From Prosthecobacter sp. (lineage in GTDB: Bacteria; Verrucomicrobiota; Verrucomicrobiia; Verrucomicrobiales; Verrucomicrobiaceae): a stretch of DNA of 64,000 bases. The position numbers and the translations under genes are program-made. Below are positions 42,354-46,880 of this stretch, piece after piece. Location: positions 806,001-870,000 of the forward strand of contig NZ_JAXMIH010000006.1 in NCBI RefSeq assembly GCF_034366625.1, read 5' to 3'. Under the pieces are notes generated by a model. The model did not search any database. It saw nothing but the letters and a program-made list of their open reading frames with translations, and was not told where the DNA came from. The first letter of the stretch is position 1, and each line of letters begins with the position of its first letter.

Positions 42354-42797
42354 TCAAGCCGCGTTTCGCGTTGGAACCGCACAAGCTCCATTTTCACAGG
42401 CCAACTCGGTCACTTGGACCCGCAGCGCATCATCGCTGCGCAAACGCAGCAGGTGCGAGAGGCTGATGCGGTTGGTGGAGATCCAATGCACCACGCGGCG
42501 GGCGATCTGCTGCATGCCGGGGCTGGCAAGCCGCAGCGACCACTCGCGATACTCGCGCAAGGCCCACAGGCACGTCACCCAGGCTCCCGCGCCCTGCCAG
42601 AGTGAGCCGTCATCACCCATGACGACGATTTCCTGGTCGACACGAAGGTTCGTGAGATCGGGGCAGCGATTCCGCGCCTGCTCGGAGTCGTAGGGCATGA
42701 AATCGAGGCGAACGTAAGCAGGCTGGTCGAGCATCCAGCGCCGAAAGCGCGAGCAGAGGCCGCAACGAGCGTCGTAGAAGATGGTGAGCGTGTTCAT
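42354..42797 (-). CDS. DCC-family (DUF393) thiol-disulfide oxidoreductase-like protein
   Basis: 147 residues. IFYDARCGLCSRFRRWMLDQ is the DxxCxxC motif of DUF393 (DCC), a thioredoxin-like family; YDSEQARNRCPDLTNLRVDQ, then VMGDDGSLWQGAGAWVTCLW fits the same family. Members are proposed to be redox proteins, but the reaction is unproven. The start overlaps the preceding membrane-protein gene by 4 nt, so it is translated with the lipid-operon genes. Confidence 0.85.
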   Translation of the reverse strand: MNTLTIFYDARCGLCSRFRRWMLDQPAYVRLDFMPYDSEQARNRCPDLTNLRVDQEIVVMGDDGSLWQGAGAWVTCLWALREYREWSLRLASPGMQQIARRVVHWISTNRISLSHLLRLRSDDALRVQVTELACENGACAVPTRNAA

Positions 42798-43249
42798 GAC
42801 ACAGTTCTAGACTTGGGTTGGTCCATCCGAGCGCGGACATAAGCGGCGACGGTGCCGGTAATAGCTGCTCCGAAAGCAAACGCGCTGTAAACGGACCAAG
42901 CCGCCTCATCCAAGGGAACCTGCGAGTTCGCTATCAACATCAAGCCGCCGACATACAAGAAGGCTGATGCCAAGCCTGTCAAAGCAGCGGTTTTTGGGCG
43001 TCTTAGTTTTGAAGTGTCTCGAACGATCAAATCCACGGGCAAAAAAATGATGATCCATGCTCCCGTGATACTCAGCCCCGTGAGTGCGAGAAAAATCAAT
43101 GTCACGTCCAACCTGTAAGCCTCAAAAAGAGGCTCCCCTCGAAAGAGCATAACCACTCCGTAAGCAATCCACATCGCGATGTTGCACGCGATCCAGCCGC
43201 ACAACATCGCGAGGAATGACAGCTTCAGTTTGCGCAGGAAGGTTTTCAC
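42794..43249 (-). CDS. Hypothetical four-TM membrane protein
   Basis: 151 residues. Four hydrophobic segments are visible: about 9-33 (LSFLAMLCGWIACNIAMWIAY), 48-72 (VTLIFLALTGLSITGAWIII), 88-107 (TAALTGLASAFLYVGGLML) and 118-138 (AWSVYSAFAFGAAITGTVAA). Basic residues flank both ends. No family recognised. Both ends overlap neighbours by 4 nt (ATGA), making it an integral member of the minus-strand operon. The coding sequence is slightly AT-richer than the desaturase. Confidence 0.65.
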   Translation of the reverse strand: MKTFLRKLKLSFLAMLCGWIACNIAMWIAYGVVMLFRGEPLFEAYRLDVTLIFLALTGLSITGAWIIIFLPVDLIVRDTSKLRRPKTAALTGLASAFLYVGGLMLIANSQVPLDEAAWSVYSAFAFGAAITGTVAAYVRARMDQPKSRTVS

Positions 43250-43662
43250 AGTGTGTCGAGGATGTCGTGAGCTTTGCTGACGCGATGCATCGGCGGAATC
43301 GGCGGCGGCAGGTTGGCGAGCGTGGCGCGACGGCGCATCTTGGTGAAGACGTAGAGGTTGAAGAAGTGCATCCCGCCGAGCACCAGCAGCACGACGCCCA
43401 TTTTGCCGCTGAGCGCCTCGAAGACGCCGCGCGCGCCGGCGATTTCATCCGCCGTTTTGAGATACAGCGACACGAAGCCGATGTTCATGAGGTAGAAGCC
43501 GACGAGCAGCAGGTGATTGACGCTGTCGGCGAGGTCCGTGTTCCCGTGGAAGCAATCGACGAGGAAGATCCGGCCGTTTTTGTGGAGTGTTCGTGCCACC
43601 CAGATGGTCAGGGTGACGGCGAGCACGAGGTAGAGAGTGTAGGTGATGACGGTTTCGTTCAT
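43246..43662 (-). CDS. Conserved small membrane protein
   Basis: 138 residues with three hydrophobic segments (about 8-24, 48-67 and 84-105). The pattern LVLAVTLTIWVARTLHKNGR, IFLVDCFHGNTDLADSVNHLLLVGFYLMNIGFVSLYLK looks like a conserved family with invariant-looking Asp, His and Asn residues at membrane edges (FHGNxxLADSxNHLL). I do not know a function for it. It is followed with a 4-nt overlap by the four-TM protein gene and preceded 39 nt away by the paralogue pair. Confidence 0.7.
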   Translation of the reverse strand: MNETVITYTLYLVLAVTLTIWVARTLHKNGRIFLVDCFHGNTDLADSVNHLLLVGFYLMNIGFVSLYLKTADEIAGARGVFEALSGKMGVVLLVLGGMHFFNLYVFTKMRRRATLANLPPPIPPMHRVSKAHDILDTL

Positions 43663-43701
43663 GGTGGTGTATGGGTTGAGTTGAGGATTGGAATGGTTTT
43701 A

Positions 43702-44118
43702 TCACCCCAGCACGGCTTTCAAATAAATCACGGCGAACGCGGAGTAGCTGAGGAAGACGATCCAATGAATCGCTGTGCGATCCGCGATGCCGCGCCAGTG
43801 AACCGAGCTATAGTGCGTCCATTGCATCACACAGCGCAGGCCCCAGAAGATGCCGACACCTGTGGAGAACCAGCGGAGAAACTCGTGTGTGCCGCCTGCG
43901 ATGTCGGGAGCGAACCGCCAAGTCAGCGTGCCGAGAATGAGAAGCGTGATGGAGATGAACCAGCCGTGGATTTGAAACACCTCGCGCACGAGCAGCGGCA
44001 TGTTCGAGATGGCCTCTTTCCAGTCGAGCATTCGCGCGAGAAAGAAACCGAGCACGGCAATAATGATCTGTCCGGCGGCGGCGAATTGGAGGGCGAGGAT
44101 GAGTGTGTCGGTGTTCAT
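43702..44118 (-). CDS. Small four-TM membrane protein, intact copy
   Basis: 138 residues from the ATG at 44118; a longer frame to 44202 has a non-hydrophobic, implausible N-terminus. Four hydrophobic segments. Motifs LDWKEAISNMP, REVFQIHGWFISITLLILGT and GVGIFWGLRCVMQW are echoed in the next upstream gene (LNWKANLASLPPFLR, GAFIVLTIAGLGMLT, AVFWSA), so the two arose by tandem duplication. No named family. Context with a desaturase and an acyltransferase suggests a membrane-lipid function (inference). Confidence 0.7.
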   Translation of the reverse strand: MNTDTLILALQFAAAGQIIIAVLGFFLARMLDWKEAISNMPLLVREVFQIHGWFISITLLILGTLTWRFAPDIAGGTHEFLRWFSTGVGIFWGLRCVMQWTHYSSVHWRGIADRTAIHWIVFLSYSAFAVIYLKAVLG

Positions 44119-44194
44119 GGTGTGGCGAAATTTTGCAAGGCGGTTTGCATTGTTGGGAATCGAAACTCGAATCCGCCTTCGACAGTTTTTGCTT

Positions 44195-44565
44195 TCAGGC
44201 ATGGTCCAAGAGAGGTTTGATCGCCGCGAAGATGTAAACCACGGCCTGGGCGATGAAGGCGATGGTCAGCGTGTGGTAGCCAATCTTGCGAGCAGTGCTG
44301 ACCAGAAGACGGCGATGAACGCTGCCAGCGACCGGGCAACCGGCTCGCCCGCAGCCATCGCCTTCGCATGCAGCAGGGTGAGCATGCCGAGGCCAGCAAT
44401 GGTCAGCACAATGAACGCGCCATAGACCCAGAACAACGTGCGCAGGAACGGCGGCAGAGAAGCGAGGTTGGCTTTCCAGTTGAGCGCCTTTGGCACCATG
44501 AAACTGGCGATCAGGATACCGAAGTGTCCGAGTCCAGCGAGAGTGAGCAGGGTTTCGAGGTTCAT
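44195..44565 (-). pseudogene. Frameshifted paralogue of the small four-TM protein
   Basis: From the ATG at 44565 the frame encodes MNLETLLTLAGLGHFGILIA and three TM segments through FIAVFWSALLARL, then stops at 44266. The conserved C-terminal helix (GYHTLTIAFIAQAVVYIFAA) continues in another frame to 44195. Compared with the intact paralogue, about 17 residues between the FW motif and the last helix are missing, so a deletion of roughly 50 nt, not a multiple of three, best explains the break. It may be a recent mutation, a sequencing error or a truncated functional protein. The start overlaps the acyltransferase stop by 4 nt. Confidence 0.65.
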
Positions 44566-45359
44566 GGCGTGGCTCCAATAGTTTTCAAAAAGGGCAGGAT
44601 CACCTGATGGATGAAGGGCGGGTGAAACAGCAGACCCACGGGCGCGATGAGGAAAGCGAAGGCCCACAACCGGCAGATGATGCCCTGCCGCAGACGAAGG
44701 CGACGGCTCAGTTCGATGCCGAGCGCTTGCAGGAGAAAGTAAGCAGTCGGTCCGCCCCAGCCTGCACCTACGGGCAGCGAGATTACAGCCTCATGCAGCA
44801 GGCCGGAGATCAGAAAGACCAGCCAGTGTGCTCCTTTCGCGTTCCATCGTGCAGCAACAGGCCGGAAGACGAGCAGGTTCATCGCATCACGGAAGGCGGT
44901 GTTCCATCTTCGTCCCCAGAAGTCGGCTAGTGACCCAGCGACGATGGGACTCTTCATGAGCGGCTCAGTGGCGCGGCCCATTTTCATCCAAAACGCTGTG
45001 ACGATGTGAAAGCAGCCGAAATGCAGCATGAACACGAGGCCCGCCATGCCGACCCAGGCCGCCACCATGGGCGTCTTTGCCAGCCATGGAACTGCGATCC
45101 ACAGAAGCGTCGCACCGAAGATGAGATTGACCAAGCCGGCGAAGGCGAGACGACGTGCATCACTTGGAGATGCCGCACACCTGCGCAGAAAGCCGGTGAG
45201 GTTGAGCGTTGGGCAAAACAGCAGCCAGGCAGTGATCTCTGAAGCGGGTGCGGAAGCCTTGGTCTTCACCAGCGTCAGCGCTTTGAGAGCGAAATAAAGG
45301 CATGCGGCCAGCAACCACATGACCAGCCATGAGGGGCAAGAGAGTGCGGCTTCTTTCAT
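44562..45359 (-). CDS. MBOAT-family acyltransferase (wax-synthase-like)
   Basis: 265 residues from the ATG at 45359, inside the 4-nt overlap with the desaturase stop. About seven hydrophobic segments. SLADFWGRRWNTAFRDAMNL is the wax-synthase/MBOAT FWgrRWH-like motif, and LISGLLHEAVISLPVGAGWG carries the conserved membrane His (SGLLHE). Such enzymes move acyl groups from acyl-CoA to alcohols, sterols or glycerolipids. Which acceptor is used here is unknown. Translational coupling to a desaturase points to lipid modification. Confidence 0.78.
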   Translation of the reverse strand: MKEAALSCPSWLVMWLLAACLYFALKALTLVKTKASAPASEITAWLLFCPTLNLTGFLRRCAASPSDARRLAFAGLVNLIFGATLLWIAVPWLAKTPMVAAWVGMAGLVFMLHFGCFHIVTAFWMKMGRATEPLMKSPIVAGSLADFWGRRWNTAFRDAMNLLVFRPVAARWNAKGAHWLVFLISGLLHEAVISLPVGAGWGGPTAYFLLQALGIELSRRLRLRQGIICRLWAFAFLIAPVGLLFHPPFIHQVILPFLKTIGATP

Positions 45360-46276
45360 GGCGTGTTGGGTTTGAGGGGAAGGAGTTCTGGCCGTGCTGG
45401 TAGATCGGCGGGCAGTTTGAGATGGGTGATCAAGCCGCAGAAGTTCAGCACACGCAGCGCCCACCAGCCGGGATCGTGCTGCGCTTGCTTGATGCCGAGT
45501 CTCGCGGAGTCGGGAAAGGCGTGATGGTTGTTGTGCCAGCACTCTCCCATCGTGATCAAACCGAGGTGCGGCAGGTTGTAGCCCTGCACCGCGTGGCCTT
45601 CGAGGTGCCAGTCACGCTCGCCGTGGTTATGCGCGAAGTAGCCGATCAACCAGTGACCGATGAGCGAGACGACGATGCGCACCGAGATGCCCCACACCAC
45701 CCAGCCGATGCCACCGAGCAGGTAAAACACGACCGCATACGGAAGCTGCTGCAGCATCCAGGTGCGTTGCAGGAAGCGGTAAAAGCGATCCTCGCGCACC
45801 TCGCGCTCGATCTCAAAGACCGGCGGGTGTTTGAGCTGCATCTCGCAGTGCAATTGCCACAGCGCATCGCGCCAGACGGGACGCTGGTCGATGAAGAACG
45901 GATGGCAGGCGCGATGCCGCTGCGCCCAGTCGCGGATGTCGTGCATGTGGAGCATGCGAAACGAGCCGCCCATGCCGACGACGATGCCGAGATGCACGAG
46001 CAGGTATTCCAGCCAGCGCGGACAGGCGAAGCTGCGGTGAATCAGCAGACGGTGTAGGCCGATGGTGTGGCCCAGGCAAAGCGTGAGCACCGTGAAGGCG
46101 AGCGACAGGCCGACTGCTCCCGGGCTGATTGTCCACCAGCCGCCGATGATCGCGATGAGCATGTGCGAGGTGAACCACAGCGACTTCACCGGACTCCACA
46201 CGACCACACCCTCAAGCGGATTCGTCAGCGCCGAAGCCGGGCGCATGCGGCGGACTTCGAGTGGCGTGTCATTCAT
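45356..46276 (-). CDS. Fatty-acid (acyl-CoA delta-9-like) desaturase
   Basis: 306 residues, four TM segments. The three His boxes are HRLLIH (75-80), HRACH (121-125, where delta-9 enzymes have HRxHH) and HNNHH (248-252), with another at HNHGE near 216. The arrangement is that of the membrane di-iron desaturases that insert a double bond into a long-chain acyl group using O2 and electrons from ferredoxin or cytochrome b5. The HRACH variant is a change from the canonical box. First structural gene of the operon; an inverted repeat lies 25 nt upstream. Confidence 0.88.
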   Translation of the reverse strand: MNDTPLEVRRMRPASALTNPLEGVVVWSPVKSLWFTSHMLIAIIGGWWTISPGAVGLSLAFTVLTLCLGHTIGLHRLLIHRSFACPRWLEYLLVHLGIVVGMGGSFRMLHMHDIRDWAQRHRACHPFFIDQRPVWRDALWQLHCEMQLKHPPVFEIEREVREDRFYRFLQRTWMLQQLPYAVVFYLLGGIGWVVWGISVRIVVSLIGHWLIGYFAHNHGERDWHLEGHAVQGYNLPHLGLITMGECWHNNHHAFPDSARLGIKQAQHDPGWWALRVLNFCGLITHLKLPADLPARPELLPLKPNTP

Positions 46277-46300: not shown

Positions 46301-46320
46301 TTTTCAGTATTTAATGAAAC
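46301..46320 (-). promoter_or_regulatory. Candidate operator upstream of the desaturase gene
   Basis: Plus strand TTTTCAGTATTTAATGAAAC: arms TTTCA and TGAAA. It matches 46861-46880, in opposite orientation, at 18 of 20 positions. On the minus strand it overlaps an AT-rich ATTAAATACTG block that could be the -10 region, so binding there would repress. The bound regulator is inferred to be the adjacent GbsR-like protein. Confidence 0.6.
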
Positions 46321-46860: not shown

Positions 46861-46880
46861 GTTTCACTAAAAACTGAAAA
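46861..46880 (-). promoter_or_regulatory. Candidate autoregulatory operator of the GbsR-like gene
   Basis: Minus strand TTTTCAGTTTTTAGTGAAAC, differing at two positions from the copy at 46301-46320. It abuts the GTG start at 46859, so a protein bound here would block transcription or initiation. Near-identity of the two sites at both ends of one gene is the main evidence. Confidence 0.6.

What the first reader, a model, noticed from the sequence alone, without database searches (positions are those of the whole stretch)
42354..46276. Operon linking a desaturase, an MBOAT acyltransferase, tandem 4-TM proteins and a DCC protein
Seven minus-strand genes run with repeated 4-nt overlaps, so they are co-expressed. 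Known families cover only the desaturase, the wax-synthase-like MBOAT enzyme and DUF393. The other four are small membrane proteins without a name. Together with the GbsR-like regulator this may be an undescribed membrane-lipid remodelling system.
Basis: partly seen in the sequence, partly recalled or inferred. Interest (0 to 1): 0.65.

Follow-up and report, generated by a model that had tools for sequence, protein, structure and literature searches.

The report
Repressor-controlled modular membrane-lipid operon in Verrucomicrobia
A bacterial operon carries its own on/off switch, a repressor gene with a matching DNA palindrome on each side, that controls an undescribed membrane-protein and thiol-protein pair plus interchangeable lipid enzymes, and related switch-and-payload units occur in several bacterial phyla, so its role can now be tested.

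Summary
The seven-gene minus-strand operon is real: four of six junctions are 4-nt overlaps, and all genes are under purifying selection. One correction: the first of the two tandem 4-TM genes (tmA) is broken in this genome by a ~52-nt frameshifting deletion. Neighbourhood comparison splits the operon into parts. (1) A conserved core: GbsR-like regulator, the 3-helix membrane protein tmC (no Pfam/NCBIfam family) and the DCC/DUF393 protein; tmC-DCC recurs in Verrucomicrobiota, Planctomycetota, Acidobacteriota, Myxococcota and Streptomyces (65 of 80 loci). (2) Swappable lipid cargo: the desaturase, and an MBOAT-tmA(-tmB) cassette, together in 12 of 12 genomes. The new result is the switch: an 18-bp palindrome, consensus TTTCAGTAATTACTGAAA, lies just before gbsR and again between gbsR and the first structural gene (69/80 and 60/80 loci, <1 expected). 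It also lies upstream of an unlinked orthologue of the desaturase in another genome. Streptomyces and Acidobacteria put the same tmC-DCC core under an unrelated TetR with two copies of another palindrome. Biochemical function is unproven; probably an inducible membrane-adaptation operon.

The parts
46862..46879 (-). Operator 1: 18-bp inverted repeat TTTCAGTTTTTAGTGAAA, ending 2 nt upstream of the gbsR GTG start
   Evidence: site at this place in 69/80 loci with <=1 mismatch (shuffle mean 0.3); one of only 7 such sites in the 6.6-Mb genome
46338..46859 (-). GbsR/MarR-type regulator (173 aa from GTG; 181 aa if TTG 46883 is used)
   Evidence: MarR_2 below cut-off, CudC 7e-14; MJ223/1ku9, E 3e-11; only GbsR homologue in its genome
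46302..46319 (-). Operator 2: TTTCATTAAATACTGAAA, between gbsR stop and desaturase start
   Evidence: site in 60/80 loci with <=1 mismatch (shuffle mean 0.5), most often 17-26 nt after the gbsR stop, whatever gene follows
45356..46276 (-). Fatty acid desaturase-like membrane protein (306 aa); His boxes 1 and 3 intact, box 2 degenerate
   Evidence: PF00487 1e-8; SCD1 4e-6; box 2 variable in family
44562..45359 (-). MBOAT_2 acyltransferase, wax-synthase/DGAT-like (265 aa)
   Evidence: PF13813 3e-9; invariant DFW..RWN and SG.LHE; DGAT1, E 5e-4
44266..44565 (-). tmA: truncated 4-TM partner of MBOAT (99 aa; frameshifted by ~52-nt deletion, remnant to ~44195)
   Evidence: intact orthologue model pLDDT 95.5, four-helix bundle
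43702..44118 (-). tmB: second member of the tmA family (138 aa, 4 TM)
43246..43662 (-). tmC: core membrane protein, three long helices (138 aa), no Pfam or NCBIfam family
   Evidence: at least 577 loci in genome contigs
42794..43249 (-). tmD: fast-evolving membrane protein (151 aa, GTG start), found with this operon in relatives
42354..42797 (-). DCC / DUF393 thiol-disulfide oxidoreductase-like protein (147 aa, DARCGLC motif)
   Evidence: PF04134 3e-15; same run as tmC in 65/80 loci

Best explanation
This is an inducible membrane-adaptation operon under a dedicated local repressor. Shown by comparative sequence: a GbsR-type protein has two copies of an 18-bp palindrome (consensus TTTCAGTAATTACTGAAA), one at its own start and one in front of the first structural gene. 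The structural genes are a conserved core, tmC plus the thioredoxin-fold DCC protein (with tmD in this group), and a replaceable slot after the second operator that here holds a desaturase-like enzyme and an MBOAT-tmA-tmB cassette. Inferred: the GbsR protein binds both palindromes and represses itself and the operon; an unidentified ligand or membrane state releases it; the desaturase-like enzyme then alters acyl chains and the MBOAT enzyme transfers an acyl group to an unknown hydroxyl acceptor, helped by its 4-TM partner(s) (only tmB is intact here); tmC anchors or partners DCC as a membrane-side thiol redox pair. Estimates: operon and autoregulation by GbsR about 0.9; membrane or lipid adaptation as the physiological output about 0.45; the specific enzyme reactions lower.
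For: Operators at both positions in 69/80 and 60/80 loci, both together in 57/80, against 0.3-0.5 per shuffled set. In G000 only 7 sites exist and two flank gbsR. Scanning 288 genomes for the palindrome found further modules: gbsR-SDR (TIGR01777), gbsR-DCC, gbsR-NmrA-type SDR, and a stand-alone desaturase orthologue (66% identity) with gbsR elsewhere in that genome. MBOAT and tmA adjacent in 12/12 genomes, usually behind a related GbsR with a variant palindrome. tmC with DCC in 65/80 loci; control: 104 flanking genes give 115 Pfam families, none in more than 4. Two distantly related FA_desaturases in the same slot. MBOAT catalytic Asn/His region aligned with DGAT1.
Against: No biochemical evidence for any reaction. 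Most tmC-DCC modules carry no lipid enzyme. The desaturase family lacks two of the three histidines of box 2 as conserved positions, so it may not be a classical desaturase. tmA is broken in this genome. tmC has only a moderate model (pLDDT 74) and no fold match.
Confidence: 0.5

Rival explanations
1. The operon is primarily a tmC-DCC membrane thiol-redox or stress module. Desaturase and MBOAT-tmA-tmB are lineage-specific passengers that gained its promoter; the core acts on membrane protein thiols, an electrophile or a toxic hydrophobic compound rather than on lipids.
For: tmC-DCC recurs across phyla mostly without lipid genes and under either of two unrelated repressors. In a 12-Mb Streptomyces genome the TetR palindrome occurs only twice, both upstream of tmC. 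A DCC-TetR fusion exists.
Against: Lipid-type genes recur under the same GbsR operator independently: an unlinked desaturase, MBOAT cassettes, an alternative desaturase in the same slot. Random passengers would not be of one kind.
Confidence: 0.3
2. A small biosynthetic operon for one acylated hydrophobic product (wax ester, sterol/hopanoid ester or acylated pigment): desaturase and SDR shape the chain or alcohol, MBOAT esterifies it.
For: MBOAT is of the wax-synthase/DGAT type; SDR TIGR01777 and DUF2071 (acetoacetate-decarboxylase-like) recur with it.
Against: No committed synthase or precursor enzyme in any version of the operon; cargo varies even between close relatives; the core has no biosynthetic enzyme.
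Confidence: 0.12
3. An osmotic-stress or choline-responsive operon, as for Bacillus GbsR/OpuAR.
For: Regulator belongs to the GbsR-like group; GbsR and OpuAR respond to choline or betaines (PMC6207618).
Against: CudC score 52 against a cut-off of 218; no Opu, Gbs or cyd genes near; the published survey says GbsR proteins outside the osmostress group lack the aromatic cage; CydE responds to sulfate (PMC6096048).
Confidence: 0.05
4. Chance cluster of unrelated genes.
For: Composition varies between relatives.
Against: Overlaps, selection, operators and cross-phylum recurrence.
Confidence: 0.01

Closest known systems
GbsR/OpuAR/OpcR/CydE local MarR-type repressors (PMC6207618, PMC7396694, PMC6096048)
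   Same: MJ223-like GbsR-family regulator next to the genes it would control; A/T-rich inverted-repeat operator.
   Different: No osmolyte or cyd genes; operators present twice in conserved positions; the literature survey of 179 GbsR proteins describes no such gene context in its text.
Bacterial acyl-CoA/acyl-lipid desaturases (PF00487; SCD1 fold)
   Same: Membrane desaturase family, His boxes 1 and 3, 4e-6 to SCD1.
   Different: Second His box degenerate ([HQ]-x-x-[CS]-H) across the family.
MBOAT_2 wax-synthase/DGAT-like acyltransferases (PF13813)
   Same: Pfam cut-off passed; Asn and His of the catalytic region conserved.
   Different: Always encoded with dedicated 4-TM tmA-family partner(s) that have no Pfam family.
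DCC/DUF393 thiol-disulfide oxidoreductase-like proteins (PF04134)
   Same: Pfam cut-off passed, D-x-x-C-G-L-C motif.
   Different: Encoded with the unnamed membrane protein tmC and a dedicated repressor; one natural fusion to TetR.

Membership tests
GbsR-type regulators | MJ223-like winged-helix protein by sequence | tested here: met
   phmmer to 1ku9 (MJ223) E 3.3e-11
GbsR-type regulators | CudC choline regulator equivalog score | tested here: not met
   51.9 bits against cut-off 218; so it is not filed as a choline regulator
GbsR-type regulators | Osmoprotectant or cytochrome bd gene neighbourhood (sub-group feature) | tested here: not met
   Neighbours are tmC, DCC, MBOAT, SDR, desaturase
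GbsR-type regulators | Aromatic cage for choline (osmostress sub-group) | not tested
   No reference alignment of cage residues was built here
FA_desaturase (PF00487) | Pfam gathering score | tested here: met
   35.7 against 29.7 bits
FA_desaturase (PF00487), classical acyl-CoA desaturase | Complete set of histidine-box metal ligands | tested here: not met
   Boxes 1 and 3 present; box 2 keeps only its last His across the family
MBOAT_2 (PF13813) | Pfam gathering score and conserved catalytic Asn/His | tested here: met
   37.4 against 25 bits; invariant DFW..RWN and SG.LHE aligned with DGAT1
MBOAT_2 (PF13813) | Acyl transfer activity | not testable with these tools
   Needs enzyme assay or lipidomics
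DCC1-like (PF04134) | Pfam gathering score and CxxC | tested here: met
   57.9 against 27.8 bits; CGLC present

The most novel reading that the evidence does not exclude
tmC-DCC is an undescribed, cross-phylum, ligand-inducible membrane-redox module. It is kept under dedicated autorepression by either of two unrelated repressor families, GbsR-type (TTTCAGTAATTACTGAAA twice) or TetR-type (TTGAACNNGTTCAA twice), and bacteria load lineage-specific lipid enzymes onto its promoter. It would be a general envelope-stress response not yet on any list.
Probability: 0.45. Interest if true: 0.78.

Novelty: new variant of a known kind. Interest (0 to 1): 0.62.

Why it matters
At least two membrane protein families without any Pfam name (tmC with at least 577 loci, and the tmA/tmB partners of MBOAT) gain a defined genetic context, a predicted switch with exact operator sequences, and a regulon that can be tested. 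The same core under two unrelated repressors in Streptomyces, Acidobacteria, Planctomycetes and Verrucomicrobia points to a common inducing signal. Reporter screens in a Streptomyces laboratory strain could identify that signal directly, which would open the function of DUF393/DCC proteins and of these membrane families.

Tried and rejected
Foldseek of the tmC model against PDB: nothing. VIA-align of tmA: only generic four-helix bundles, Z up to 10.8, below the helical background of about 13. tmC profile to a bacteriorhodopsin (5jsi), E 0.002 on helices only: taken as composition, not kinship. Literature for DUF393 or GbsR with lipid genes: nothing relevant; the heliorhodopsin and S. aureus linoleic-acid papers mention DUF393/DCC only incidentally. 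Pfam scan of genes flanking tmC for a hidden extra partner: none recurs. First gene tiling by longest ORFs gave wrong genes and was replaced by homology plus codon scoring. 'Seven genes as one lipid system' was rejected because tmC-DCC usually lacks lipid enzymes. Sigma-70 and terminator scans were uninformative.
Full report
Observation. Four of six junctions are exact 4-nt overlaps. Pfam and NCBIfam name only the desaturase, the MBOAT enzyme and DCC. All genes show purifying selection against relatives (dN/dS 0.07-0.31). tmA is damaged: relatives encode 136-141 aa, but the window copy lost about 52 nt in the third helix, shifts frame and stops at 99 aa. The window lies in a 6.6-Mb genome in 30 contigs whose nearest named relatives are Verrucomicrobiaceae/Prosthecobacter.

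Modular anatomy. In the same genus the operon keeps gbsR, tmC, tmD (one or two copies) and DCC, while the genes between gbsR and tmC change: nothing, the desaturase alone, MBOAT-tmA alone, or both as here; in one genome MBOAT-tmA-tmB sits after DCC with a DUF2071-like gene. A scan of one genome per species found at least 577 tmC loci. Among the best 80, tmC shares a same-strand run with DCC in 65, a GbsR-like gene in 39, a TetR in 18, a TIGR01777 SDR in 13, MBOAT in 5, this desaturase in 5 and DUF2071 in 5. As a control, 104 flanking genes outside these labels hit 115 Pfam families, none in more than four. The sample is skewed to the window's relatives because it was ranked by similarity, and some family models were trained on these loci.

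MBOAT cassette. In 288 genomes of the phylum, twelve hold a full MBOAT homologue (E below 1e-30) and all twelve have a tmA-family gene beside it. Most of these are separate GbsR-MBOAT-tmA-(tmB)-SDR/DUF2071 operons without tmC. Their GbsR proteins fall on a branch apart from most tmC-type GbsR proteins. In the window's family the other sampled genera keep such a separate operon, so the window's genus probably moved the cassette behind the tmC-type promoter (inference).

The switch. TTTCA-N8-TGAAA, close to the perfect palindrome TTTCAGTAATTACTGAAA, lies right before gbsR in 69 of 80 loci and between gbsR and the next gene in 60 of 80 (at most one mismatch; 0.3 and 0.5 in mononucleotide shuffles), at near-constant positions and whatever gene follows. 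The loci are related, but there are 41 and 45 distinct site sequences. In the window the sites are 46862-46879 and 46302-46319, two of only seven in the whole genome. MBOAT-only modules carry a variant half-site, TTTC[TG]GTAA. Used as a probe over 288 genomes, the palindrome found modules that the protein searches had not joined: gbsR-TIGR01777 SDR, gbsR-DCC, gbsR-NmrA-type SDR in small-genome relatives of the same order, and a stand-alone desaturase 66% identical to the window's, in a genome whose gbsR lies elsewhere. Several other hits of that scan had no such gene near and may be chance; the control pattern also had scattered hits.

A second switch on the same core. tmC-DCC-TetR modules of Streptomyces, Acidobacteria and Planctomycetes carry TTGAACNNGTTCAA twice, 44-80 nt apart, upstream of tmC in 19 of 21 cases and in none of 14 loci where neither regulator was found. 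In one 12-Mb Streptomyces genome these two sites are the only exact ones. One Acidobacteria locus encodes a single 506-aa ORF with DCC fused to TetR.

Mechanism. Shown by comparison: one operon, two operators, conserved core, swappable cargo. Inferred: repression by GbsR, release by an unknown ligand, acyl-chain and acyl-transfer chemistry by the cargo, and a membrane-thiol role for tmC-DCC. The MBOAT enzyme keeps its catalytic Asn and His. The desaturase keeps two of three histidine boxes, so the chemistry of its active site is open. The tmA fold is a confident four-helix bundle with no specific relative found; tmC is three long helices with moderate confidence.

Comparison with what is known. 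The GbsR family survey (PMC6207618) found osmolyte, transporter and cytochrome bd contexts and many unexplained ones, not this one. GbsR of Bacillus uses an A/T-rich inverted repeat (PMC7396694). TIGR01777 relatives include ThyD, a thylakoid protein involved in high-light acclimation (PMC12288457), a weak hint at membrane stress. I found no paper describing tmC-DCC or MBOAT-tmA in the library searched.

Verdict. The lipid reading holds for the cargo and is unproven for the core.

Noticed in passing
L118:7408-8928: Single 506-aa ORF with an N-terminal membrane segment, DCC domain and TetR domain: a natural fusion of the DCC protein with its usual repressor.
   Followed up: partly
window 44266-44195: Out-of-frame remnant of the tmA C-terminus after a ~52-nt deletion; real mutation or assembly error not decided.
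   Followed up: partly
window 42321-39487: PVC-type heme-binding CxxCH gene starts 32 nt after DCC, and this spacing is kept in many relatives of the genus; may be co-transcribed.
   Followed up: no
L243, L244, L245: Small-genome (2-3 Mb) members of the same order keep a minimal version, operator-gbsR-operator-SDR, with no tmC, DCC or lipid enzyme beside it.
   Followed up: partly
L043:10678-10749: Relic of a tmC C-terminus before a second tmD in genome G012: footprint of a tmC-tmD tandem duplication; the window tmD is 90% identical to that second copy but only about 46% to most others.
   Followed up: no
L088:6087-6953: A distantly related FA_desaturase (21% identity) sits in the slot between gbsR and tmC where relatives have the window-type desaturase.
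   Followed up: yes
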